IMG/VR virus record: IMGVR_UViG_3300032307_000705
Location: 1 to 64,000 of that record
Reading direction: 5' to 3' (one strand)
DNA: 64,000 nt
Origin: a virus
Below the pieces are notes generated by a model. That model worked only from the letters and a program-made list of their open reading frames with translations, was not told the DNA's origin and did no database searches. Positions 4,723-20,068 of the stretch are shown piece after piece; the first letter of the stretch is position 1; every line of letters begins with the position of its first letter. The translations under genes were made by a program, and so were the position numbers.

Positions 4723-5352
4723 ATGATAAAAAATTTAGAACAGTATCCAATAGTTAGAGAACACAACTGGAATGAAGAAGAACTTATTCATTTTGAAAAT
4801 AAAATAGTTGAAAGTTGGGAAACTGGTAAAATACGAGGTCCTGTTCATTTAAGTGGAGGTAATGAAAAACATCTTATTGAAATCTTCAAAAGAATTTCAG
4901 AGAATGATTGGGTATTTTCAACATGGAGGTCTCATTATCATGCTTTACTTAAAGGAGTATCACCTGATTGGTTAGAATCAGAAATTTTGGATGGAAGATC
5001 CATTAGTATCATTAATAGAGAAAAAAAATTTTATAGTTCTGCGATTGTTGGTGGAATAATTCCAATTGCGACTGGTGTTGCAATGTCCAATAAACGAGAT
5101 AATAAGAATGATATCGTTTGGTGTTTCATTGGGGACATGACTTTTGAGACAGGTACTTTTATGGAAAACTACAAATATATAAAAAACTTTGAGTTACCTG
5201 TTAGATTTGTTGTTGAAGATAATGGAGTTTCTACAAATACCCCAACAATCGAGACATGGGGTAAAAAATTAGAGGTCCCGAATGATGTGGTTTATTACGA
5301 ATATGAAAAACATTGGCCTCATTATGGAACAGGTAAGTGGGTTGTATTTTAA
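4723..5352 (+). CDS. TPP-dependent dehydrogenase/transketolase-like alpha subunit (PP domain)
   Basis: A 209-residue protein resembling the E1-alpha subunit of 2-oxo-acid dehydrogenases. It has 'STWRSHYHALLKG', then 'SAIVGGIIPIATGVAMS', and the thiamine-diphosphate motif starting GDM (where GDG is usual) at about residue 139 and ending at 'VVEDNG' about 30 residues later. Usual E1-alpha proteins are 320-360 residues, so this is a minimal version. A matching pyrimidine-domain subunit lies at 6549-7076. Together they would bind TPP and act on a 2-oxo acid or ketose. The substrate is unknown; sugar or phosphonate/sulfonate chemistry is possible given the neighbours. Confidence 0.75.
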   Translation: MIKNLEQYPIVREHNWNEEELIHFENKIVESWETGKIRGPVHLSGGNEKHLIEIFKRISENDWVFSTWRSHYHALLKGVSPDWLESEILDGRSISIINREKKFYSSAIVGGIIPIATGVAMSNKRDNKNDIVWCFIGDMTFETGTFMENYKYIKNFELPVRFVVEDNGVSTNTPTIETWGKKLEVPNDVVYYEYEKHWPHYGTGKWVVF

Positions 5353-5361
5353 TTGAAGATT

Positions 5362-6549
5362 ATGAAGTATTTTAATTTATTGTTTGATAGTAATATCGAA
5401 AACGAAAAGGAACATATTTTTAACACTTTGACTGCTAACAAAGTTGACGAGATTAAAATGATTGATATTAATAATTTTGAGATTGACTCCGAACAAAAAT
5501 ATTATTCATTTACAATAACAGGAACTTATATGGAAAATTTCCAATCACTTCCTGCGTCCTCAAAAGTAAAAGAGTTAATGAAATCGTACTCCAATTGCTT
5601 TCTTGTTATTTTAGCGGAACATGAGTCCGACAATGGAAACGTAATAAAACTTATTGAAAAATATTGTAATGAAGAATCGATTAATTCGAATCAGGTAATT
5701 GCAATCAATGGAAATCAGAAAATAAAAAAATTAATCAATGAGTTAGATAGTAAAGTTGTTGGACATACTTCAAATAGGTTACCTTATGTGGCGGTCGAAG
5801 GAATGACCTCATTCAAGTACGAATTTCAAAAAGACAAAGAATCATTTTTTATGTGCTATAACAGAATGTTAAAACCACATAGAGTGTCTCTGTTGGCGTT
5901 ACTGAAAAGAGAAGGGATATTAGATGAAGTTGATTGGACAATGTTACGTGGTAATGAATTGAATGAACGATTCTCCGATCCAGATGGAACACCATCATTC
6001 AATTTATTTTTTGAAGTTTTTGATAGAGACGACTTCAAAGAATATTATAATGAAATATTATTTCTTCAAAAATCAGGGGTTAAAAAAAGTAGGTTTGAAG
6101 AAGAATATAGAGTTGACCAACCACCTTACTTCATTGACTTTTATAAAACATATGAAATGAATCCTTATAGAAATTCATATGTTAATATTGTTACCGAAAC
6201 TGGTTACATATCCACAGATGTAATTCATATTACGGAAAAATCATTGATGCCAATTTATTATTCTCAAATTCCTTTGATATTGGCTAATTTTGAACATAAT
6301 AAGTTCTTGAAAGAAAGATATGATTTTGATTTGTTTGAGGATATTATTGATTATTCTTATGACAATGAAAAAGACCCGAGAAAACGGATTTTTATGTTTG
6401 TTGATGAAGTGAAAAGATTAAATTCTATCAAAGACGAAATAATTAATTTTTATAAAAATAATCAGGAAAGATTTGAACTTAATAAGAAAAAAGTTACAAG
6501 TATATTACAAGATGATACCGATTACAAGTTTTTCAAAAGTTTAATATAA
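5362..6549 (+). CDS. Putative glycosyltransferase, GT10-like, paralogue of the 1490-2665 gene
   Basis: A 395-residue protein from the ATG at 5362; a TTG 9 bp upstream is possible but less likely. In its second half it has 'FMCYNRMLKPHRVSLLALL', then 'VNIVTETGYIS', 'HITEKSLMPIYYSQIPLILA' and 'FDLFEDIIDYSYD'. The VTET...TEK...P-L-I/V-L pattern followed by an F-x-D-I-x-D-Y element is shared with 1490-2665 and resembles the donor-binding region of GT10-like enzymes. It is inserted between the two TPP-enzyme subunit genes. The N-terminal 130 residues are unassigned. The glycosyltransferase call is inference. Confidence 0.45.
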   Translation: MKYFNLLFDSNIENEKEHIFNTLTANKVDEIKMIDINNFEIDSEQKYYSFTITGTYMENFQSLPASSKVKELMKSYSNCFLVILAEHESDNGNVIKLIEKYCNEESINSNQVIAINGNQKIKKLINELDSKVVGHTSNRLPYVAVEGMTSFKYEFQKDKESFFMCYNRMLKPHRVSLLALLKREGILDEVDWTMLRGNELNERFSDPDGTPSFNLFFEVFDRDDFKEYYNEILFLQKSGVKKSRFEEEYRVDQPPYFIDFYKTYEMNPYRNSYVNIVTETGYISTDVIHITEKSLMPIYYSQIPLILANFEHNKFLKERYDFDLFEDIIDYSYDNEKDPRKRIFMFVDEVKRLNSIKDEIINFYKNNQERFELNKKKVTSILQDDTDYKFFKSLI

Positions 6550-7076
6550 TGGAATACAAAGATTCATTAACAATCGCAATGACAAAGTTAGGAAAAATGG
6601 ATAATACTATTTTTCTTGGGCAACAGATATTATTTCCGGGAAACCCGATGAGTTCAACTTTGGTCGATGTTCCAAAAGAAAAAATGATTGAATTACCGGT
6701 GATGGAAGATTCTCAAATGGGAATGTCTTTGGGTATGGCAATGACAGGGAAATTTGTGATTACATTTTATCCGAGATGGGACTTTTTGATTTGCGCTGCT
6801 AATCAATTAATAAACCATGTTGATAAGATGGAATTAATGAGTAATGGTCAGTGGAAACCAAATATGATTATTAGAGTCGGTAAAGGATCGGAAATACCTT
6901 TGAATCCAGGCCCTCAACACAGAAATAATTATTTCAAAGAGTTTCAGTCAATAACTCACACAATAAAATTCTTTGATTGTTTGACTGCGGATGATGTTAA
7001 AACCGCTTATGGCCACGCAATAAATGAGGGAGGGATAACCTTAATTAATGAATATCCCGAAAAATACAATTCATAA
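6549..7076 (+). CDS. TPP-dependent enzyme beta subunit, pyrimidine domain only
   Basis: A 175-residue protein resembling the first half of E1-beta or the transketolase pyrimidine-binding domain. 'MIELPVMEDSQMGMSLGMAMTGK' (about residues 47-69) contains the Glu that activates the thiamine aminopyrimidine ring. 'YPRWDFLICAANQLINHVDKM' matches the following helix region. The usual C-terminal transketolase domain is absent; ordinary E1-beta is about 325 residues. It overlaps the upstream stop by one base (TAATG) and is followed directly by the carbamoyltransferase. It is probably the partner of the alpha-like subunit at 4723-5352. Confidence 0.75.
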   Translation: MEYKDSLTIAMTKLGKMDNTIFLGQQILFPGNPMSSTLVDVPKEKMIELPVMEDSQMGMSLGMAMTGKFVITFYPRWDFLICAANQLINHVDKMELMSNGQWKPNMIIRVGKGSEIPLNPGPQHRNNYFKEFQSITHTIKFFDCLTADDVKTAYGHAINEGGITLINEYPEKYNS

Positions 7077-8884: not shown

Positions 8885-9379
8885 ATGGGAGTAATTAGAT
8901 TTACAACTGATGAATGTGCTAAAATTATTTCACTGTCAAATGTTTTTGAAAAACATTTATCAAGTGAATGGTGGGAGGGTAATCAGACCATATATTCAGC
9001 ATGGCATTTAGAAAGGAATGAAATGACTGAGTGGATTTTCGAAAGATTATTAACTTATCTCGAACAAAATACAAATATAGTCTTAAAACAACCTCTAAGT
9101 TTGATTCATTTACAAAATGTTCAAACTGGAAACAAGTTTGAACCTCATATAGATAAAAGGAGTGAATATAACGTAGGGGTTTGCCTTAATGATGATTACG
9201 GAGGTGGGGAACTCATATGTTATGAACCAAAAATTATCTTACCTAAAATTACTGGAAGTATATATACATTCTACGGTACTAAGGTTCATGAAGTTAAAGA
9301 AGTAACCTATGGAGAAAGATGGTCTTTAATCGCGTTTTTCGATAAAAATACGATTGATAGAAAGAAAAATTCAATATAG
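8885..9379 (+). CDS. 2OG-Fe(II) oxygenase, prolyl 4-hydroxylase-like
   Basis: A 164-residue protein carrying the P4H-type core. 'FEPHIDKR' gives the HxD ligands, 'DDYGGGELICY' is the loop typical of P4H-like folds, and 'VHEVKEVTYGERWSLIAFF' holds the distal His and the Arg for 2-oxoglutarate. The start at 8885 follows the preceding gene by 28 bp. It is the second of three oxygenases of this superfamily within 9 kb, which suggests repeated hydroxylation steps on related substrates. Whether these are proteins or glycans cannot be told from sequence. Confidence 0.8.
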   Translation: MGVIRFTTDECAKIISLSNVFEKHLSSEWWEGNQTIYSAWHLERNEMTEWIFERLLTYLEQNTNIVLKQPLSLIHLQNVQTGNKFEPHIDKRSEYNVGVCLNDDYGGGELICYEPKIILPKITGSIYTFYGTKVHEVKEVTYGERWSLIAFFDKNTIDRKKNSI

Positions 9380-9410: not shown

Positions 9411-9418
9411 TATTTATA
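9411..9418 (+). promoter_or_regulatory. TATTTATA motif, candidate phage late promoter element
   Basis: TATTTATA ends 17 nt before the start of the Hint protein in a 56-bp intergenic gap. It is one of ten such motifs placed just upstream of starts in this window. Confidence 0.5.
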
Positions 9419-9435
9419 ATTGAACAAAAAATATT

Positions 9436-11718
9436 ATGAAAGGAACCTTATTTTCGGCTGACTTTGTCAAAGACTCAGATGGCAATTTGAGATTGTTAGA
9501 ATTAAACACTGATACAGGATTTATTAAACAAGAATTACAAAATTTCGATTTTTCTCAGTTCGAACAAATGTTAGAGGATAATAATATTTCTGAACTAGAT
9601 ATCATATATAAACCGGATCTCCATGAATATTTTGTAAACCAATTATTATCTTCTCTATCACTTGAAATTCCTGTAAACTTACATAAAGAAGATAATACTA
9701 CAATATATCCAACGCAAGTTACAAATTCTGATAATAGATTTATTTTAAGATTAGCGTATGATGAATCCGCTTTATTTGATAGTGAATATTGTAAAAATAG
9801 ATTGAATGTGTTCAATTTATTTACTGATAATTCCATAAATGATTATTGTGTTGGATATTATCATTCATCATCATCGGGAGTAAAAAATACTCTTACAAAG
9901 GAGATAAATCCAAATAATATACCCGATGCTACTATAAAAGATGTAGATGAATCACACAATCCAATTGATTTCTTCAAAATAGGTTCTCAAAATGAAAATG
10001 AATCAGTCGAAGACCGGTGGAACAACTTTATTAGTGAAAATGATACAGAAGATAAATTGATAGAACAATATCACTTTCACCCATCTAGTGTTGATGTAAA
10101 CAATCACATAACATCATATAGATTTTTTGGAATAGTGTATGGGTCTAATTTGGAAGTAGTAACTTTACACACTTACAAAATTAGTTCAATATTCGATTTA
10201 CCAATTGATTTAACATCTGAAATAGTTGAGAACAACTACACAAACAAAATTCCTGATTTCCATTACTACGAGTTTGCAACTAACTTATTCAGGGGTGATT
10301 CTTCAGGAATATTATCAACTCATGAAATTTTAACTGACGAAAACACTTATAAACCGATATCAGAATTTGTTGTCGGAGATTATGTGAAATCGTACTATGT
10401 ATCTCGTTCTCTTGAAGACAAGTTGAATCTTGATTTTACTTTTCCAACTGACACACCACCAAATGGATCATATCTTACATCATCGGTTGTCGTTTATAAA
10501 GCAATCGAAAATTTAACATATAATAGTATGTTCGAATTAAAAGTAGATAATGATTCTTTTTTCTGTGGAGTGAATAAACCATTTTTGGTTTTTGATTCTG
10601 ATTCTAATACTAGCTCATTTAAGCAAGTACATAAAATAAAACCAGGAATAGATTATCTATACGATATTGATAGTAATATGGTTGGCATAGATGAATTGAA
10701 TTTCTATGTGTCCACCGACAATAATTTAAGTTATATCGAACTGGATGTTGAAGATACCGATACCTATATTATAAATGGATCTACCTCAATCCATTCGATA
10801 GTTTCTCATAATTCTCCTTGTTTTGTTGCGGGTACACAAATTTTGTTAGAAAATGGACTTACAAAAAATATTGAAGATGTAGTTGTAGGTGAATATGTAA
10901 TGTCATTTGATTTGAAAAATAACGAATCGAAAGTTAGTAAAGTTCTAAATATTTTTTCTAAAAAAATCGACAAGATTGTTGAATATGAATTTTCGGATGG
11001 AAGTACTTTGAAAGCAACATTAGATCATCCAATTTATGTTATAGATAAAGGATGGGTCAACTATTTAGGTGAACCAGAACAATATAATAATATTTCATTT
11101 GACGGAATCAAACCGGCCAAAAAACTGGAAGTAGAAAAAATACAAATCGGTGATAGTGTAAAATTACATAATGGAGATATTAAATTGATTAATATGAATG
11201 TAATAGAAGAATCCACAATCGTATATAATTTATCAGAAATTGAAAAATACCATACATATTTTGCTAATAATGTATTAGTTCATAATTTTAGACCAGTTCT
11301 TATCTGTTTTACGGCTGAAACTAAAGTGAAAATGGAAGATGGTAGTTTCAAAAAAATTGTTGATATCGAAATCGGAGATTATGTTTTAAGTTACAAGGAT
11401 GGTAAATACGTAAGAGGTGTCGTGACTGATAAATTAATACACCCAATGAATTCAATAATTGAAGTTGTTAAATATAAAGGAATGACCGCCGATAGGTTAC
11501 ATCCATTTTATGATAACGGAGAATGGAAACCAATTTGTGAAGCTAAGGGAGTTGAATTTGATGTTCAATATGTAGATAATTTTTATAATTTAGAAGTAGA
11601 TGGTGATGTTTTATTTGAAAGTGATCATAATTTTATAGTAGAGGATTTTGTGGTTTCTGGTTTAGGAGATAATGAATTACTTAATACAACATTCAAAAGA
11701 CAAGCAGTTTTTCAATAA
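9436..11718 (+). CDS. Triple tandem Hint (intein/hedgehog-type) domain protein
   Basis: A 760-residue protein. Residues 1-280 form an unassigned N-terminal region; 'LRLLELNTD' (18-26) and 'RFILRLAYDESALFD' (101-115) faintly recall ATP-grasp motifs, which is speculative. Three Hint-like domains follow. Hint1, about 289-459, has 'PISEFVVGDYV' and ends SHN|S at 458-460, but Gly291 or Ser290 stands where the first Cys should be. Hint2, 462-617, begins CFVAGT, has 'TLDHPIYV' at 528-535 and ends VHN. Hint3, 624 to about 740, begins CFTAET, has 'RLHPFYD' and 'DHNFIV'. Hint domains perform N-S acyl shift, cleavage or ligation. The gene has its own promoter-like motif. No homing endonuclease insert and no obvious extein host protein are visible. 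Confidence 0.8.
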   Translation: MKGTLFSADFVKDSDGNLRLLELNTDTGFIKQELQNFDFSQFEQMLEDNNISELDIIYKPDLHEYFVNQLLSSLSLEIPVNLHKEDNTTIYPTQVTNSDNRFILRLAYDESALFDSEYCKNRLNVFNLFTDNSINDYCVGYYHSSSSGVKNTLTKEINPNNIPDATIKDVDESHNPIDFFKIGSQNENESVEDRWNNFISENDTEDKLIEQYHFHPSSVDVNNHITSYRFFGIVYGSNLEVVTLHTYKISSIFDLPIDLTSEIVENNYTNKIPDFHYYEFATNLFRGDSSGILSTHEILTDENTYKPISEFVVGDYVKSYYVSRSLEDKLNLDFTFPTDTPPNGSYLTSSVVVYKAIENLTYNSMFELKVDNDSFFCGVNKPFLVFDSDSNTSSFKQVHKIKPGIDYLYDIDSNMVGIDELNFYVSTDNNLSYIELDVEDTDTYIINGSTSIHSIVSHNSPCFVAGTQILLENGLTKNIEDVVVGEYVMSFDLKNNESKVSKVLNIFSKKIDKIVEYEFSDGSTLKATLDHPIYVIDKGWVNYLGEPEQYNNISFDGIKPAKKLEVEKIQIGDSVKLHNGDIKLINMNVIEESTIVYNLSEIEKYHTYFANNVLVHNFRPVLICFTAETKVKMEDGSFKKIVDIEIGDYVLSYKDGKYVRGVVTDKLIHPMNSIIEVVKYKGMTADRLHPFYDNGEWKPICEAKGVEFDVQYVDNFYNLEVDGDVLFESDHNFIVEDFVVSGLGDNELLNTTFKRQAVFQ

Positions 11719-11936: not shown

Positions 11937-12326
11937 ATGATATATTTTAGATATAGATTTAACACACGAGGTGTTGGGATTGTATCAAATAGTCAAATAG
12001 TGAAAGACACTTATATAGGGAATTGTGCCTCTAAGTTTGAAACTATAACAAAAGAGAACAGAATAATTTATAACGGGTGGATTGAAACGAACCCATTAGG
12101 TAGATACATAAATCATAATAGAACCCCAAATTGTAAAGTAATTTTGGATGGTGATACTGTTAAGTTGTATTCGATGAATAATATTGATATGTGGGAAGAA
12201 CTTACAGTAAATTATTTAGATTTTGCAAATGTAATTGAAATGCCTGAAAATTTGTTAGAAAAATTTGGAATAAGAGATTTCGATTACATTCCTGAGACAA
12301 TAAAAGTAGAAACTAAATTAATATAG
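11937..12326 (+). CDS. SET-domain protein (putative lysine methyltransferase)
   Basis: A 129-residue protein consisting almost only of a SET core. Near the start 'TRGVGIVSNSQIVKDTYI' matches the first SET strand pair. 'GRYINHNRTPNC' (about residues 55-66) corresponds to the conserved RFINHSCxPN motif that forms the pseudoknot and binds S-adenosylmethionine, with Asn in place of Ser. 'EELTVNYLDF' matches the GEELTxDY motif. The length is close to minimal viral SET proteins such as vSET. The target could be a host or phage protein lysine. It lies between the Hint gene and a P4H-like oxygenase, suggesting protein modification. Confidence 0.8.
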   Translation: MIYFRYRFNTRGVGIVSNSQIVKDTYIGNCASKFETITKENRIIYNGWIETNPLGRYINHNRTPNCKVILDGDTVKLYSMNNIDMWEELTVNYLDFANVIEMPENLLEKFGIRDFDYIPETIKVETKLI

Positions 12327-12362: not shown

Positions 12363-12884
12363 ATGCAAGCCGTTATTCAAAAAAAATTATTTAATAAAGA
12401 TGAATGTGATTATTTCAAATCATTGTCTGACGATAAATCGTTTCAACGAGAACACAGTAAACTTCTAATTCTATCGGAACATAGAACTTGGACTGAGTCA
12501 GTGATAGATTTGAATTATGATTTATCAAATATAATATTGGAGAAATTAAAAGAATTTGGAATTGTAAGTTTACCCAAATTTTTTGTAATTCTAAAATATA
12601 TTAAGGGCCAAGAATTAAAAAGACATAATGATACTGCCCTACAATATCCAAACAGATATAAAACTTTGATAATACAACTTTCAAATGAAACCGATTATGA
12701 TGGTGGAGAACTATGCATTTTTCAAAATGGTAAAACTACTATCTCATCAAAAGAAATCGGGAATGTTATAATGTTTGATTCGTCTATAGATCATTGCGCT
12801 AATAAAATTAAGGATGGCATACGATATAGTATGGCTTTTTGGCTATCTATAGATAATTTTGGATTAAATAAATCTCTAGTATAA
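12363..12884 (+). CDS. 2OG-Fe(II) oxygenase, prolyl 4-hydroxylase-like
   Basis: A 173-residue protein with the complete P4H-type signature. 'LKRHNDTALQYP' supplies HxD, 'TDYDGGELCIF' the typical loop, 'NVIMFDSSIDHCANKI' the distal His, and 'GIRYSMAFWLS' the 2-oxoglutarate Arg. It is the third oxygenase of this fold in the region and is closest in layout to the one at 8885-9379. The neighbours, SET protein and radical SAM protein, point to a modification cluster. The substrate is unknown. Confidence 0.82.
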   Translation: MQAVIQKKLFNKDECDYFKSLSDDKSFQREHSKLLILSEHRTWTESVIDLNYDLSNIILEKLKEFGIVSLPKFFVILKYIKGQELKRHNDTALQYPNRYKTLIIQLSNETDYDGGELCIFQNGKTTISSKEIGNVIMFDSSIDHCANKIKDGIRYSMAFWLSIDNFGLNKSLV

Positions 12885-12939: not shown

Positions 12940-14007
12940 ATGATTGAAAAATCAAAATATATTTGTGAAGTTCCATTCACATCCTTAGAGATTCATGACC
13001 ATCAAAGATTTTTATGTTGTGCATCTTGGTTAACTAAATTTTTACCTGATGATACTAAACCAAACGAAGCATGGAATTCCGAGGAAGCGAATGACATTCG
13101 AAATAGTATATTAGACGGTTCATATAGGTATTGTGATGATAAACAATGCCCGTTTTTACACCAATTAAATACATTTGGTGATGTTGGTAGAATACAGCCT
13201 ATCTACCATAAAGATAAACTAACCCCCGAGTTAAAATTAAAAATAGAAAAACATAAAGAAGGTAAATTAACATCACCACAGATAGTTCAATTTTCGATGG
13301 ATAGGAGTTGTAACCTTGAGTGTCCCTCATGTAGATTGGAGATGATTATTGCTGATAGCAAAAAAATTAAAAAAGTAAAACAAGATATACAAGATATTGA
13401 AGACTCATTTGGAAGTGAAGTTAATACACTATACATAACGGGTAGTGGAGACCCATTTGTGTCAGTTGGTTTTAGAGATTTTTTAAGAAATTTTGATAAA
13501 TCTAAATGGCCAAAATTGAAAACAATTCACTTACATACTAATGCAACACGTTGGACTAAGGAAATGTGGGAATCGATGCCAAACATACATCAATATGTTA
13601 AAAGTTGTGAAATTAGTGTCGATGCTGGAACTAAAGAAACCTATGAAACAAAAACAAGAATAAACGGTGATTGGGATTTATTAGTAGATAACTTGAAGTT
13701 TATCTCTACAATACCAACTTTAAGGAGTATAAAAACTTCGTTTGTAGTCCAACAAAAAAATTATAAAGAAATGAAGTTATTCTACGATTTAATGTATTCT
13801 ATTTTTGGTGAAAAGGTAAATGTGTTTTTCGGTAAAATAACTAATTGGGGTACATTTAGTGAAGATGATTTTTTATTAGAACAAATTTGGAATGAATCTC
13901 ATCCGGAGTATAACGAATTTATAAAAGAAGTTAATTCTTTCTTGCCAAACAATTATAGTTGGAGTAATTTACAAGAATTTATCACACCTGTTAAAACTTT
14001 AATATGA
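12940..14007 (+). CDS. Radical SAM protein with extra N-terminal cysteine cluster
   Basis: A 355-residue protein. The radical SAM motif C-x3-C-x2-C lies at residues 124, 128 and 131 ('DRSCNLECPSCR'), followed by 'LYITGSGDPFVS' matching the GGE-like SAM-binding strand. Cysteines at 26/27, 65 and 70 form a second set before the core; 'HQRFLCCASW' resembles the auxiliary-cluster part of SPASM/twitch proteins but in N-terminal position. Such enzymes make carbon-centred radical modifications on peptides, sugars or cofactors. It overlaps the sulfotransferase-like gene by 4 bp, so the two are probably co-translated. Confidence 0.85.
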   Translation: MIEKSKYICEVPFTSLEIHDHQRFLCCASWLTKFLPDDTKPNEAWNSEEANDIRNSILDGSYRYCDDKQCPFLHQLNTFGDVGRIQPIYHKDKLTPELKLKIEKHKEGKLTSPQIVQFSMDRSCNLECPSCRLEMIIADSKKIKKVKQDIQDIEDSFGSEVNTLYITGSGDPFVSVGFRDFLRNFDKSKWPKLKTIHLHTNATRWTKEMWESMPNIHQYVKSCEISVDAGTKETYETKTRINGDWDLLVDNLKFISTIPTLRSIKTSFVVQQKNYKEMKLFYDLMYSIFGEKVNVFFGKITNWGTFSEDDFLLEQIWNESHPEYNEFIKEVNSFLPNNYSWSNLQEFITPVKTLI

Positions 14008-15456: not shown

Positions 15457-16127
15457 TTTCTATTATCAATATATATCATAATTTCGTTATAATAAGGAAT
15501 AAAGTTTTCATTCCATATTGACCAAGTAATATCAATTCCATCAAAAGAATAAACTTTGAAATTAGGGAAAAATCTTAAATAAACATCTCTGAATATTCTG
15601 AACTTTTCTTTCATCCATCCTTCTCTTAAATGCCATTCACCTGAAATTTTTCTCACATTATTTTTAATCCAAAATAAATTTTCCAATGTGAAAATATCGT
15701 ATTCACCAGTTTCACAGTCAGTTTTCAAGAAATCAATTTTTTTGATGTTGTAATCTTTGATTACCTTATTGAATGTAGTTGAATAGAGTTTATGGCCACC
15801 TGAAACATCAAATACTTCAGAAAATTCAAATTCTCCGATAGCGTTGGTTATGCCTTTATTAATATGAGTAACATTTCCATGTCTTGTATTCAAAACTAAT
15901 GTTTTGAATTCTTCGAAACTTGGTTCAAAGGCAAAAACCTGTGAAGGATTTTTGTGTAAGATAGAATAGGTGAATGGGCCAAGACTAGCTCCAATATCAA
16001 ACACTACATCTCCCTCCTCGACTTCGAAGAATCTTTCATAAATTTTATCCACGAAAATTTCTTTTTCGACGGTTTCTCGGAATCCTTCATAACATTTAGG
16101 TTCCCAAACAAAGTTTTCTAAGTTCAT
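15453..16127 (-). CDS. FkbM-family methyltransferase
   Basis: A 224-residue protein from the ATG at 16127, which overlaps the upstream stop as ATGA. An in-frame start 57 bp further upstream would extend into the preceding gene and is less likely. The SAM-binding motif 'VVFDIGASLGPFTYSIL' and the acidic 'VFAFEPSFEEF' are typical of FkbM, as is 'IDFLKTDCETGEYDI'. Family members O-methylate sugars or polyketides. It is the last gene of a minus-strand glycosyltransferase operon, so methyl capping of a phage-specified glycan is the likely role. Confidence 0.85.
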   Translation of the reverse strand: MNLENFVWEPKCYEGFRETVEKEIFVDKIYERFFEVEEGDVVFDIGASLGPFTYSILHKNPSQVFAFEPSFEEFKTLVLNTRHGNVTHINKGITNAIGEFEFSEVFDVSGGHKLYSTTFNKVIKDYNIKKIDFLKTDCETGEYDIFTLENLFWIKNNVRKISGEWHLREGWMKEKFRIFRDVYLRFFPNFKVYSFDGIDITWSIWNENFIPYYNEIMIYIDNRN

Positions 16128-19100
16128 TTTAATAAGTGTTGTATTTGATTTATTACCATTTCTGGTGTTATTGATGTATGACATTCAAATTGTCGGTTTG
16201 TTCCTTTGTGGACTGGACACCAATTCCAGTCTCCTTTATCGAATTTATATATAGGACTATTCCAACACCCGTTGCAAACATTTGGATTTGTAATTCTTGT
16301 ACAGTTAGAGGTAAATTCGTGGTCAGGTTCTGTGAAATTACTAATCATTACAACGTGTTTACCCATTGCCCAAGATAACCAAGATAGTCCACTTGATAAA
16401 CCAATAAAGAATTCACTGTGATGGATTACATTCATTGTATAATCCATCGCAATGTCTTTTATTTTTTCACAGTTGTCGAATCGATTATCTTCTTTAGATA
16501 CATTGATAACTTTATATCCGAGAGAATGAAGATAATTTATAAGACCTTGCCATCCCTCTTTTGTCCAAAACTTACACCCTGCGGTTGAGTTGGTTGCAAT
16601 TGTTACATATTTCTCTTCATAAGGTCTTTCAATAATTTTATAAGAGATTCTTGGTTTAATCTCTTTATATGGTAACCCCAATATGTTTGTCGCAGCTTGT
16701 TGTAAAGGGATTGTGTTTGGGGTAATGGGTTCTTTTTTGATATCATAGTACCATCCAATATTGTATTGACCAAATATATTATAAACAACACTTCCTGGTT
16801 CAACAAATTCTAATTCAGGATACACTTCACGGAATAAATGGTTCCAATATGTTGAAACAACTACCTCGCATTTGTGGGTATTTTTGAATTCTAAAACATA
16901 AGGTATCCATGATATTGTATCCCCCAAAGAACTGCTGTCAAAATTTATAAAAACACGTTTCCCCTCATAATTTAGAGTTTCATCATATATTAAAACCCCA
17001 TCTTCAAGAACTTTTGTATTCCATTTTGTAAAATATTGCCGATTTAATTTAACCCAATGATTTGTTTTTATTTTATTATGATAATGGCAGATATCGAATT
17101 CATCAAAGAATTTTATATCATATTCGCTATTACTTTCTCCGATAATTTCTAAAAATGGTTCATTTATGAAAAATTGTTTAATGTTTACTTTGGTACTATT
17201 TTTAGATTTCTTTCTTGGTTCTTGGGTTAATAAATAATTATAAAGATTATAATGTTTAACGGCAAATTCTTTAGTCATGCCATCTAAAATTTTATAGTCC
17301 CGACTTGATGAGATTAATCTGCGTAATGAATTTACATTTGAGAGTAAATCGTCCGTAAGAGGAGTGATTAAACCGTTGAACATTCCGACATATTGAGGTA
17401 AATCTCTTGCAATTATTTTCAACCCCAACGATGCCGCTTCACGTATCACAAGAGGATTACATTCCCAAGTTGAATTGAACATTAAAATATCTGAAGCTTT
17501 CATAAATGTTTCAACATCGTTTCTTTCTCCCCAAACTTTTACATTAGATGGTAGATTAGCCATTAAAGGCCCCCAATAACTTTCAAAGTTTGATGCTTGA
17601 TTTCCCACGAAATGGAATTCAACATTTGTATTTTCGAAATGTCTAGCAATTTCTATTCCCTCACCTTGATTTTTACCTGATGTCCAAAGTCCAACATTGA
17701 TAATATGTACCTTTGTGATATCTAACTCTAATTCTTCTTGTGCTCTAACTTGGTCTATACGAGTTCTAAATTTATTTTCTATTGGGTATTCAAAAACTTC
17801 TTGGTGAGATGGCATTCCTTTGAATGTCTTTTGTAAATGGTATGGAGTACACAAAGCGTACGCATCTGGATGAAAGTGTTTTGAGGACCCTGGGTCGAAC
17901 CAAATGTTATGGCATGTCTCAACCACTCTCCACGTTCTATCGTTGTCATAGAGGGCATGTTTAAGTTCGTCAGGTACTTTATTGAAAGAATCAAATCCTT
18001 CAATCATTTCATCAACATGTACAATATCTATGAAATGAGTTTTGAGAAGGTCAATCACTTTCATAGAGTTTTCAACCGTATGGTCATCCAAAGTGTTAAT
18101 AGTCCAAAATCTTTCTTCGGGGATTATTTGTTTTATTCTATCTCGTTGAACGGTGTATAGTGTTGAATATTGACAAAACTCAGCGAGAAAAAATTCTACG
18201 TCGGGATAATAGGATGAAATAGATTCGATTCTTTTTAATAAATAAGAGGGCATACCGCCTGTGGAAAGATGAGGAGCTAAATACAAAACCCTAAGTCTTT
18301 TTGGTTCAGATTTTGGAAAATATTCGCAGTCGGAATCGATCCAAGGAGAGTGTTCTAATAGTTGTTCAGCAATTGAAACATCTCCGATTTCAAATTTCAA
18401 TTTTTCTAAATCTTCCAATGCAATTTGATTAGTTAAAATTATAGGGTTATGATATTCTCTTTTTACTGACAAGTGATAATCTACGAATTTGAAGTCACCA
18501 CCTTGGATTAAATCTGATATTGAGACGATATGATTAGGAATACCATATGCATCCGATGCGATTAACCCATGTAAACTTGATGATAATATGTTTTCACATT
18601 CCAAAAGTTCATCTATGAACTCATATATTCCCGAAGTTATATTAATAATTTTAATACCTAAGTTTTCAATATTGTTAATTACCCTCAGTCCTTCTATAGT
18701 TGTGTAATCGGAGTAGTGGGGTATTAACCCATATTTATACTTTTTTTCTATTTTTGGGTTATATATTTTTGGAAAAAGTAATGCTGGATCACCATATATT
18801 TCAGGTACTTCCCACCCTTTTCTCATCAAAACTTCTCTTGTTTGTGGACCCCGAACCGCATATATTTTTTTAGGGATATCTCCGATACTATCATTGTCAA
18901 TACATCCTGTACCCCAGACATAATCATTAGGTTTGGTAAATCTTGTTAAACTACCCGTCCCAATAATTTTTCCATTTTTGAATGGAATTATACCCCGACT
19001 ATCAAAGTGAAAAACATCTTCATCATTTAATTTTTTTCCTGAAAAATGTTCCAAAATGAATTTGGTAATAATGTCTCCCCAATTTTTTGATGGGTCTATG

Positions 19101-20068
19101 TTTGGATATTCTCTAATCTCTTCGGAGGTGGTGTTATATTTTTTTATTTCTTTTACCATCTCTCTCATTAATTCAATATTTTTTTCTCCATGAAAAAACA
19201 AGAGATGTTCTTTATAATAAGGTACTCGTAACCAATTTCCATGAAAATTGAATGTGCCAGGTCCTTTGTATTCTAATTCATTATACATTTTGTTCACGGT
19301 CTCAACACTACCGTTAACATAGATATAAGGTAATCCCTCTTGAATATTATATTTCCAAAGCAAAACATTTGAGATTGTTTCTTCGTCGTATGGGGCATAA
19401 TGACTTATATTGTTTAGAATTTTCGGATGATTACACATCCAATACCATTCATCTAAAAAATCATATGTGTTTTGTCCTGCAACAAAATATCCTGTTTGTC
19501 TATAAAACTTTCTTACTGTTTGGTCAACATTGAATAGTTCGCATGCGTTGTGCTCGAGAGTGTCAGACCATCCACCTCCCAACGCGCCTCCACCACCTCT
19601 ACCATCGTATTTCAAAAATTCATATATCCCTTCAACAAAATAAGGGAATGCCGAGTCTTCTTTGAAATATGAGAATATGGTATCAATTAATGGAGTTGCA
19701 ACAGAATCACTATCGACGTAGCATACTGTGTTAGAATACTTCGATAGGGCATCTTTGATGACTAGTGGTCGTTGAATTAAAATCTTATAAATTGTTGGAT
19801 TTTTTCTATCAATATAGAAATTATTATTATTTTTAAGATAAAGTTCATTCGATAAATCATTAATTTGTAAGTCCCATCTTATTGTTTTGGTATTTGAGAC
19901 TTCAACTTGTTTGTCTGAGTTTATGAGATAGACTATAACAGGTAATTCACTGAATTCTCTAATAGATTTTACGCATTCGGTAAGAATATCAAAATAGTTT
20001 TCAGTTGAACACAAAACGAATGATTTATCGAATTTTGTTATATTTTCATTGGTGTTTGAATTATTCAT
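16124..20068 (-). CDS. Four-module glycosyltransferase / polysaccharide pyruvyltransferase fusion
   Basis: A 1314-residue protein with four enzymatic modules. (1) About 15-300: GT-A-like domain with a 'CYVDSDSVATP' DxD motif (116-126). (2) About 325-545: polysaccharide pyruvyltransferase-like domain, with 'NWGDIITKFI' (329-338), 'GDPALLFP' (426-433) and 'SSSLHGLIASDAYGIP' (496-511). (3) About 590-950: GT4 GT-B domain, with 'APHLSTGGMPSYLL' and 'STWECNPLVIREAASLGLKII'. (4) About 960-1314: GT9-like domain close to TibC/BAHT O-heptosyltransferases, with 'GLSSGLSWLSWAMGKHVVMIS' and cysteines at 1265, 1268, 1284 and 1296 resembling their iron-binding finger. The protein could assemble and cap a glycan. 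No stop or frameshift interrupts it. Confidence 0.8.
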   Translation of the reverse strand: MNNSNTNENITKFDKSFVLCSTENYFDILTECVKSIREFSELPVIVYLINSDKQVEVSNTKTIRWDLQINDLSNELYLKNNNNFYIDRKNPTIYKILIQRPLVIKDALSKYSNTVCYVDSDSVATPLIDTIFSYFKEDSAFPYFVEGIYEFLKYDGRGGGGALGGGWSDTLEHNACELFNVDQTVRKFYRQTGYFVAGQNTYDFLDEWYWMCNHPKILNNISHYAPYDEETISNVLLWKYNIQEGLPYIYVNGSVETVNKMYNELEYKGPGTFNFHGNWLRVPYYKEHLLFFHGEKNIELMREMVKEIKKYNTTSEEIREYPNIDPSKNWGDIITKFILEHFSGKKLNDEDVFHFDSRGIIPFKNGKIIGTGSLTRFTKPNDYVWGTGCIDNDSIGDIPKKIYAVRGPQTREVLMRKGWEVPEIYGDPALLFPKIYNPKIEKKYKYGLIPHYSDYTTIEGLRVINNIENLGIKIINITSGIYEFIDELLECENILSSSLHGLIASDAYGIPNHIVSISDLIQGGDFKFVDYHLSVKREYHNPIILTNQIALEDLEKLKFEIGDVSIAEQLLEHSPWIDSDCEYFPKSEPKRLRVLYLAPHLSTGGMPSYLLKRIESISSYYPDVEFFLAEFCQYSTLYTVQRDRIKQIIPEERFWTINTLDDHTVENSMKVIDLLKTHFIDIVHVDEMIEGFDSFNKVPDELKHALYDNDRTWRVVETCHNIWFDPGSSKHFHPDAYALCTPYHLQKTFKGMPSHQEVFEYPIENKFRTRIDQVRAQEELELDITKVHIINVGLWTSGKNQGEGIEIARHFENTNVEFHFVGNQASNFESYWGPLMANLPSNVKVWGERNDVETFMKASDILMFNSTWECNPLVIREAASLGLKIIARDLPQYVGMFNGLITPLTDDLLSNVNSLRRLISSSRDYKILDGMTKEFAVKHYNLYNYLLTQEPRKKSKNSTKVNIKQFFINEPFLEIIGESNSEYDIKFFDEFDICHYHNKIKTNHWVKLNRQYFTKWNTKVLEDGVLIYDETLNYEGKRVFINFDSSSLGDTISWIPYVLEFKNTHKCEVVVSTYWNHLFREVYPELEFVEPGSVVYNIFGQYNIGWYYDIKKEPITPNTIPLQQAATNILGLPYKEIKPRISYKIIERPYEEKYVTIATNSTAGCKFWTKEGWQGLINYLHSLGYKVINVSKEDNRFDNCEKIKDIAMDYTMNVIHHSEFFIGLSSGLSWLSWAMGKHVVMISNFTEPDHEFTSNCTRITNPNVCNGCWNSPIYKFDKGDWNWCPVHKGTNRQFECHTSITPEMVINQIQHLLK

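What the first reader, a model, noticed from the sequence alone, without database searches (positions are those of the whole stretch)
9436..11718. One protein with three tandem Hint (self-processing) domains
The sequence shows three consecutive Hint-like blocks with matched spacing. In each, 23 residues separate the first position from a G-D/E-Y-V motif. Hint2 and Hint3 have Cys first and an HN ending. Hint1 has lost the Cys but ends HNS with a Ser in the +1 position. Inteins and hedgehog/BIL proteins normally carry one Hint domain per site. A tandem triple with an unassigned 280-residue N-terminal region, in a phage modification island next to a SET protein and oxygenases, could be a programmed self-cleaving or ligating polyprotein, or a scaffold that conjugates its N-terminal region to another molecule.
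Basis: partly seen in the sequence, partly recalled or inferred. Interest (0 to 1): 0.82.

Follow-up and report, generated by a model that had tools for sequence, protein, structure and literature searches.

The report
Phage protein with tandem self-cutting domains
A family of uncultivated large phages makes a protein whose front part resembles a glutathione-synthetase-type enzyme and whose back part is a run of up to four intein-like domains, most of which keep every residue needed to cut themselves but none of the residues needed to splice, so it looks like a self-cutting (or self-conjugating) protein of a new layout.

Summary
The three Hint blocks are real. Hint2 (462-617) and Hint3 (624-743) pass curated cut-offs. 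Hint1 (291-459) is invisible to HMM libraries but matches a phage virion-protein Hint subfamily by profile-profile comparison (prob 98.5%, E 1.7e-15). One correction: Hint3 has no terminal Asn. Its 'HN' is the internal HNF motif, and the domain is Vint-like (Cys1, no TxxH, no C-terminal Asn).

The protein is not unique. I found 28 more full-length relatives on IMG/VR phage contigs (one copy in each of 14 checked), all with the same N-terminal domain plus Cys-less Hint1, followed by 0, 1, 2 or 3 Cys-Hints. All 50 complete non-Vint Cys-Hints keep Cys1, TxxH and HN; their +1 residue is K (25), R (20), L, Y, I or F, never C/S/T. That is the BIL signature: cleavage or transfer, not splicing. The last Hint is a swappable cassette. 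The N-terminal domain most resembles eukaryotic-type glutathione synthetase (permuted ATP-grasp; Foldseek E 3e-4), without sequence-level proof.

Best reading: a self-processing protein that sheds, or transfers through, its Hint array. This is a new architecture built from known Hint/BIL/Vint parts. No activity has been shown. It is absent from 50,697 isolate-phage records and 84,980 prokaryote genomes at the sensitivity used.

The parts
9411..9418 (+). TATTTATA element 25 nt upstream of the start codon (ATATTTATA-like motif, possible phage promoter element)
   Evidence: an ATATTTA/GTATTTA core lies just upstream of the gene in all 23 loci read, exact TATTTATA in most of them; TATTTATA 6-fold enriched upstream of ORFs; role inferred
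9436..11718 (+). whole gene, 760 aa: N-domain, Hint1, Hint2, Hint3
   Evidence: relatives
9436..10284 (+). N-terminal domain, residues 1-283, probable eukaryotic-type glutathione-synthetase-like (permuted ATP-grasp) fold; invariant D9, E22, N24, K59, R105, D109, E110, K168, K181, R229, H276
   Evidence: AlphaFold2 pLDDT 82.9, pTM 0.80; Foldseek 5oes_E E 3.1e-4 prob 1.00; invariants; hhalign with GSS puts ADF..ELNT on SDY..EINT but not significant
10306..10812 (+). Hint1, residues 291-459: Cys1 replaced by Gly, terminal Asn459 invariant; predicted C-terminal cleavage only
   Evidence: hhalign 98.5% / E 1.7e-15 with virion Hint subfamily; alignment
10813..10818 (+). Ser-Pro linker between Hint1 and Hint2 (Ala-Pro in most relatives; absent in three)
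10819..11286 (+). Hint2, residues 462-617: Cys462, T528-x-x-H531, H616-N617 all present; +1 is Phe618; BIL-type
   Evidence: Pfam/NCBIfam; Foldseek BIL2 6y75 E 3.3e-10; catalytic table
11287..11304 (+). linker FRPVLI between Hint2 and Hint3
11305..11664 (+). Hint3, residues 624-743: Vint-type, Cys624 and His689 kept, no terminal Asn; swappable last cassette
   Evidence: Pfam Vint 1.3e-13; domain identities
11665..11715 (+). C-terminal tail GDNELLNTTFKRQAVFQ (residues 744-760)
   Evidence: direct reading; SGLGDxxELN conserved in Vint-type members
8885..9379 (+). 2OG-Fe(II) oxygenase gene directly upstream, conserved neighbour
   Evidence: Pfam 3.8e-7; synteny
11937..12326 (+). SET-domain gene directly downstream, conserved neighbour
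   Evidence: Pfam 2.2e-8; SET in relatives; synteny
12363..12884 (+). second 2OG-Fe(II) oxygenase gene
   Evidence: Pfam 3.7e-11
12940..14007 (+). radical-SAM-like gene (sub-threshold), conserved in the cluster
   Evidence: Pfam 1.3e-4, 8.6e-6 in a relative

Best explanation
This is a phage protein that processes itself. An N-terminal domain of probable glutathione-synthetase/ATP-grasp fold is followed by a Cys-less Hint (Hint1) and a short array of BIL/Vint-type Hint domains. Shown here by sequence: the architecture, its conservation, and the state of each catalytic residue. Inferred: (1) Cys462 (Hint2) and Cys624 (Hint3) each turn the peptide bond before them into a thioester, as in Hedgehog, BIL and inteins. 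(2) With no Cys/Ser/Thr at +1 there is no trans-esterification, so the thioester is resolved by water or by an amine nucleophile; the result is cleavage or transfer rather than splicing. (3) Asn617 (Hint2) and Asn459 (Hint1) cyclise to cut behind them. Hint3 has no Asn, so it can only act on its own N-side. The net effect would be to shed the array in steps, leaving the N-domain (with or without Hint1) with a freed or newly conjugated C-terminus. The N-domain would then act, possibly together with the 2OG-oxygenase and SET proteins encoded beside it, on a phage or host target.
For: Hint homology of all three blocks. 50/50 complete non-Vint Cys-Hints in 29 distinct proteins keep C1, TxxH and HN, and their +1 is K25/R20/L2/Y/I/F, never C/S/T. 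[quoted passage not shown] The closest solved structure is BIL2 of Tetrahymena BUBL1, reported to transfer its N-side ubiquitin-like domain onto a lysine (PMC8616854). Hint1's terminal Asn is invariant although its Cys1 is gone. Purifying selection on every domain (dN/dS 0.10-0.24 for window against L010). One copy per phage in 14/14 records. Conserved modification-gene neighbours.
Against: No biochemical evidence of any kind. The residue before Cys462 is Pro in most members, and Pro at -1 is known to hinder thioester formation in standard inteins (own knowledge), so the P461-C462 cut may be slow or absent. In 19 of 29 members the last Asn is followed by a single terminal Lys, where cutting would release only one residue. 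Two relatives (L042, L043) have no Cys-Hint at all, so the array is not indispensable. The ATP-grasp assignment rests on one Foldseek hit; profile-profile comparison with GSS is not significant, and the ATP-binding G-loop motif is missing.
Confidence: 0.55

Rival explanations
1. Conjugation device: the Cys-Hints hand their N-side onto an amine. In the BIL2 manner a lysine, possibly the Lys at +1, attacks the thioester, so the N-domain ends up isopeptide-linked to Lys or to another protein.
For: +1 is Lys or Arg in 45/50 Hints and Lys in all 19 members ending HNK*. Closest structure is BIL2, reported to form an isopeptide with a lysine (PMC8616854). A +1 Lys is also seen in virion-type Hint proteins of the same phages (HNKGG).
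Against: Arg cannot serve as that nucleophile, yet it is at +1 in 20/50; five Hints have a hydrophobic or aromatic +1; no acceptor identified; no biochemistry.
Confidence: 0.2
2. The Hint array is a catalytically inert, beta-rich structural tail (degenerate inteins) and the protein stays whole, perhaps as a virion or scaffold part.
For: Hint1 has lost Cys1; Hint3 has lost TxxH and the terminal Asn; -1 Pro before Hint2. Hint1 belongs to a subfamily found in virion structural proteins.
Against: Perfect conservation of C1, TxxH and HN in 50 Hints as divergent as 25-40% identity is hard to explain without catalysis.
Confidence: 0.15
3. Hint2 is an ordinary mini-intein that splices out and joins Hint1-linker to Hint3.
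For: Hint2 passes the NCBIfam intein_Nterm and Pfam Intein_splicing cut-offs; one relative (L051) lacks a middle Hint.
Against: +1 never Cys/Ser/Thr; insertion point and linkers are not conserved; no homing endonuclease (132-167 residues); no conserved host motif at the site.
Confidence: 0.08

Closest known systems
Bacterial intein-like (BIL) domains, A-type
   Same: Hint fold, Cys1, TxxH, HN end, no nucleophilic +1 residue, no endonuclease (Hint2 and its kin)
   Different: here 0-3 such domains in direct tandem with short linkers (0-12 residues), behind a degenerate Hint and an ATP-grasp-like domain
BUBL (polyubiquitin-like) proteins of ciliates, BIL2 domain
   Same: best solved-structure match (6y75, E 3.3e-10); intein-like domain inside a polyprotein, BIL2 reported to transfer to lysine (PMC8616854)
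   Different: in the BUBL1 locus BIL2 is flanked by ubiquitin-like domains; here almost nothing lies between the Hints, and no ubiquitin-like domain was seen
Vint domain
   Same: Hint3 hits Vint best (1.3e-13); Cys1 kept, terminal Asn lacking; Vint described as having motifs A and B but lacking J, K, L (PMC2362128)
   Different: no VWA domain; phage; occurs behind another Hint
C-terminal Hint domains of phage virion proteins (Erwinia Alexandravirus gp111; NCTB 'large intein domain protein'; L081/L082)
   Same: Hint1 belongs to this subfamily (98.5%, E 1.7e-15); NCTB also ends VLVHNAP..., compare HNAP here
   Different: those keep Cys1 and are single; Hint1 has Gly and is followed by further Hints
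Eukaryotic-type glutathione synthetase (permuted ATP-grasp)
   Same: fold match 5oes_E E 3.1e-4; D9, E22 and N24 lie where GSS has its Asp and Glu Mg ligands and the adjacent Asn (PMC2845819; ScGS D130, E146)
   Different: no GSS sequence signal, no KPQREGGGNN G-loop, about 280 residues instead of about 474

Membership tests
Hint superfamily | Hint fold / blocks A, B, F, G | tested here: met
   for Hint2 and Hint3; for Hint1
BIL type A (Hint2 and relatives) | Cys1, TxxH, C-terminal HN | tested here: met
   50/50 complete non-Vint Cys-Hints
BIL type A (Hint2 and relatives) | no Cys/Ser/Thr at +1 | tested here: met
   K25 R20 L2 Y1 I1 F1
BIL type A (Hint2 and relatives) | autocatalytic N- and C-cleavage | not testable with these tools
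   needs expression and mass spectrometry
Canonical (class 1) intein | Cys/Ser/Thr at +1 and conserved host insertion site | tested here: not met
Class 3 intein (Hint1 considered) | WCT motif: internal Cys nucleophile in place of Cys1 | tested here: not met
   no conserved Cys in the Hint1 alignment (direct reading)
Vint (Hint3) | Vint profile above curated cut-off | tested here: met
   51.6 bits against 27
Vint (Hint3) | VWA-Vwaint domains upstream | tested here: not met
   no such Pfam domain
BUBL polyprotein | ubiquitin-like domains between BILs | tested here: not met
   linkers of 0-12 residues
Eukaryotic-type glutathione synthetase / ATP-grasp (N-domain) | fold | tested here: inconclusive
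   one significant Foldseek hit, E 3.1e-4, TMq 0.40
Eukaryotic-type glutathione synthetase / ATP-grasp (N-domain) | sequence profile (PF03917) | tested here: not met
Eukaryotic-type glutathione synthetase / ATP-grasp (N-domain) | Mg/ATP residues: Asp, Glu, Lys, Lys and G-loop | tested here: inconclusive
   D9, E22, K168, K181 invariant; G-loop absent; Lys correspondence is by order only

The most novel reading that the evidence does not exclude
A phage-encoded, enzyme-free conjugation machine. Successive Hint domains activate the C-terminus of an ATP-grasp-like domain as a thioester and pass it to lysine (the +1 Lys or a partner protein), with an exchangeable last Hint cassette choosing the acceptor or the timing.
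Probability: 0.12. Interest if true: 0.88.

Novelty: new variant of a known kind. Interest (0 to 1): 0.62.

Why it matters
I found no described Hint proteins that stack up to four Hint domains head to tail, and none fused to a glutathione-synthetase-like fold (papers searched). If the array is active, one polypeptide holds up to three thioester-forming sites in direct tandem. That would be useful for protein engineering and would make the open question of what phage-borne Hint domains are for directly testable. The uniform lack of a +1 nucleophile with near-uniform Lys/Arg at +1, and the swapping of the last Hint between phages, are concrete and checkable patterns.

Tried and rejected
N-domain in INPHARED by tblastn: no hit even at E 1 or with the most divergent members (Hint hits only). 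N-domain in 84,980 prokaryote genomes: none. N-domain profile against PDB sequences: none meaningful. Pfam on all 30 N-domains: only noise; one weak GSP_synth preATP-grasp hit, E 0.053. BFVD structures: nothing significant. hhalign against glutathione synthetases: correct motif aligned but P 0.089. PF03917 in the phage genome: none. Defence-system library: only a weak homing-endonuclease-style match to Hint3. Considered and dropped: Hint2 as a homing intein (no endonuclease, no +1 nucleophile, unconserved site); linkers as released peptides of a RiPP-like precursor (linkers are short, variable and often absent); Hint1 as a class 3 intein (no internal Cys).

Full report
What is there. The ORF at 9436-11718 (+) encodes one uninterrupted 760-aa protein in an 83,722-base virus record, present once. 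Curated models call Hint-type domains in residues about 453-745 (Vint 1.3e-13, Hint 1.4e-13, Hom_end_hint 4e-13, Intein_splicing 2.5e-9; intein_Nterm 5.9e-12 in two stretches). The AlphaFold2 model (mean pLDDT 73) matches solved BIL domains best (6y75 E 3.3e-10; 2lwy E 7e-9), then inteins, Hedgehog and the Tetrahymena Vint structure. The first block is not seen by any HMM library. A profile of 29 homologous Hint1 segments nevertheless aligns over 151 columns with a Hint subfamily found in virion-like proteins of the same phage group (98.5%, E 1.7e-15) and, more weakly, with the family's own Hint2 and Hint3 sets (E about 1e-7). The negative control, the N-domain against the Hint2 set, gives 0.1%.

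One detail is corrected. Hint3 does not end in HN. H731-N732 belongs to the internal HNF motif. The domain continues to FVVSGLGDNE and has neither a terminal Asn nor TxxH, though Cys624 and His689 are kept. The same is true of all 7 distinct Vint-type members.

The family. Scans of IMG/VR gave 44 contigs carrying relatives: 28 further distinct full-length proteins plus one partial. None was found in 50,697 isolate-phage records using the N-domain as query or in 84,980 prokaryote genomes. Each of 14 phage records checked, up to 326 kb, has exactly one copy. Every member has the same N-domain (30 invariant positions among 30 sequences) and the Cys-less Hint1. After that come 0 (L042, L043), 1 (L051), 2 (21 proteins including the window) or 3 (5 proteins) Cys-Hints. 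Across the family there are 58 Cys-Hints: 7 Vint-type, 1 truncated (L031) and 50 complete. All 50 keep Cys1, TxxH and a terminal HN. Their +1 residue is Lys (25), Arg (20), Leu (2), Tyr, Ile or Phe, and never Cys, Ser or Thr. Nineteen of 29 proteins end in HNK-stop. Hint1 has lost Cys1 (a nearly invariant Gly instead) but its terminal Asn is invariant.

Evolution. Between window and L010 (81% identical) dN/dS is 0.11 (N-domain), 0.24 (Hint1), 0.14 (Hint2) and 0.10 (Hint3), so all parts are under purifying selection. The last Hint moves independently of the rest. The rank correlation of pairwise identity is 0.66 between N-domain and Hint1, 0.67 between N-domain and Hint2, but 0.34 between N-domain and last Hint. 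For example window against L033 is 45/28/28/84% and window against L013 is 75/62/59/28% (N/H1/H2/last). In 3-Cys-Hint members the last two Hints are 48-57% identical, more than any other pair in the same protein, which fits tandem duplication.

The N-terminal domain. AlphaFold2 on 30 sequences gives a good model (pLDDT 82.9, pTM 0.80). Its one significant PDB match is plant glutathione synthetase 5oes_E (E 3.1e-4, probability 1.00, TMq 0.40). Glutathione synthetase of eukaryotic type is a known gene-permuted relative of its bacterial counterpart (Polekhina et al., cited in PMC2845819). The invariant N-terminal motif FSADF-x11-E-L-N-T-D sits on the GSS motif RSDYM...EINT in hhalign, but that alignment is not significant (P 0.089). 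The corresponding yeast residues D130 and E146 belong to the Mg site, and human R267, K305 and K364 bind substrate and ATP phosphates (PMC2845819). The window has invariant D9, E22, N24, R105, K168 and K181. The Lys correspondence is by order only, and the G-loop KPQREGGGNN has no counterpart. I therefore treat 'ATP-grasp of GSS type' as probable for the fold and open for activity.

Neighbourhood. The gene lies in a modification island: NAD-dependent epimerases, carbamoyltransferase, TPP-enzyme halves, 2OG-Fe(II) oxygenases, SET, radical-SAM-like protein, glycosyltransferases, FkbM methyltransferase. A 2OG oxygenase lies within about 1.7 kb in 20 of 23 loci by one homology cluster, and in 21 when a second oxygenase cluster is counted. 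The two exceptions are L042 and L043, the members with no Cys-Hint. A SET gene follows directly in 12 loci and precedes in one; the window has its own SET gene at 11937-12326. All 23 loci carry an ATATTTA-like element just upstream of the start. Elsewhere the window has phage replication, sigma-factor and SbcCD-type genes.

How it probably works. From established Hint chemistry, Cys462 and Cys624 can each form a thioester with the residue before them, and Asn617 and Asn459 can cyclise and cut behind themselves. Without a Cys/Ser/Thr at +1 the trans-esterification needed for splicing is not available. Published work says that such BIL domains mainly cleave (PMC7664689), and that the closest solved relative, BIL2, instead passes its N-side to a lysine (PMC8616854). 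The best reading is thus stepwise self-processing that frees, or conjugates, the N-domain side. Against it stand the Pro before Cys462 in most members (unfavourable for thioester formation in standard inteins; own knowledge), the existence of members without any Cys-Hint, and the total lack of biochemistry.

Known or new. The parts are known (BIL, Vint, virion Hint, probable GSS fold). The combination was not found in the papers searched: direct tandem arrays of up to four Hints, a Cys-dead first Hint with an invariant Asn, near-uniform Lys/Arg at +1, and an exchangeable last Hint. I rate it a new variant of a known kind.

Noticed in passing
L081:145-1464, L082:457-1773, L083:33-1805 (from two other phages of the group): Other likely virion-type proteins of the same phages carry a single active-looking Hint (Cys1, TxEH, HN), two of them internal with HN-KGG and an Fn3-like stretch behind, one C-terminal with HN-AKGGAPPG. 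Related Hints sit in Erwinia jumbo-phage virion structural proteins.
   Followed up: partly
window 9411 and upstream of the Hint gene in 22 other loci: An ATATTTATA-like element lies about 22-42 nt before the start codon in the loci where TATTTATA is exact; the 8-mer is 6-fold enriched upstream of ORFs in these phages. It may be a promoter of this phage group (note TATTTATA is the reverse complement of the T4 late promoter TATAAATA).
   Followed up: partly
window 16124-20068 (-): A 1314-aa protein fuses polysaccharide pyruvyl transferase, group-1 glycosyltransferase and family-9 glycosyltransferase domains; unusual multi-enzyme fusion in a phage.
   Followed up: no
window 4723-5352 and 6549-7076: Two separate short ORFs look like the two halves of a TPP-dependent enzyme (E1 dehydrogenase-like and transketolase pyrimidine-binding), split by another gene; in some relatives a single ORF of about 590 aa occupies a similar place.
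   Followed up: no
L031:10001-12163: The last Hint is cut short by a TGA (720 aa, no terminal HN); could be an assembly error or a real truncation.
   Followed up: no
L040 downstream of the Hint gene: A separate 168-aa ORF clusters with the Hint proteins and may be a stand-alone or displaced Hint cassette.
   Followed up: no
plasmids collection: A eukaryotic-type glutathione synthetase homologue (about 29% identical to human GSS) occurs on 351 plasmids, mostly Escherichia and Salmonella, predicted conjugative in 221.
   Followed up: no
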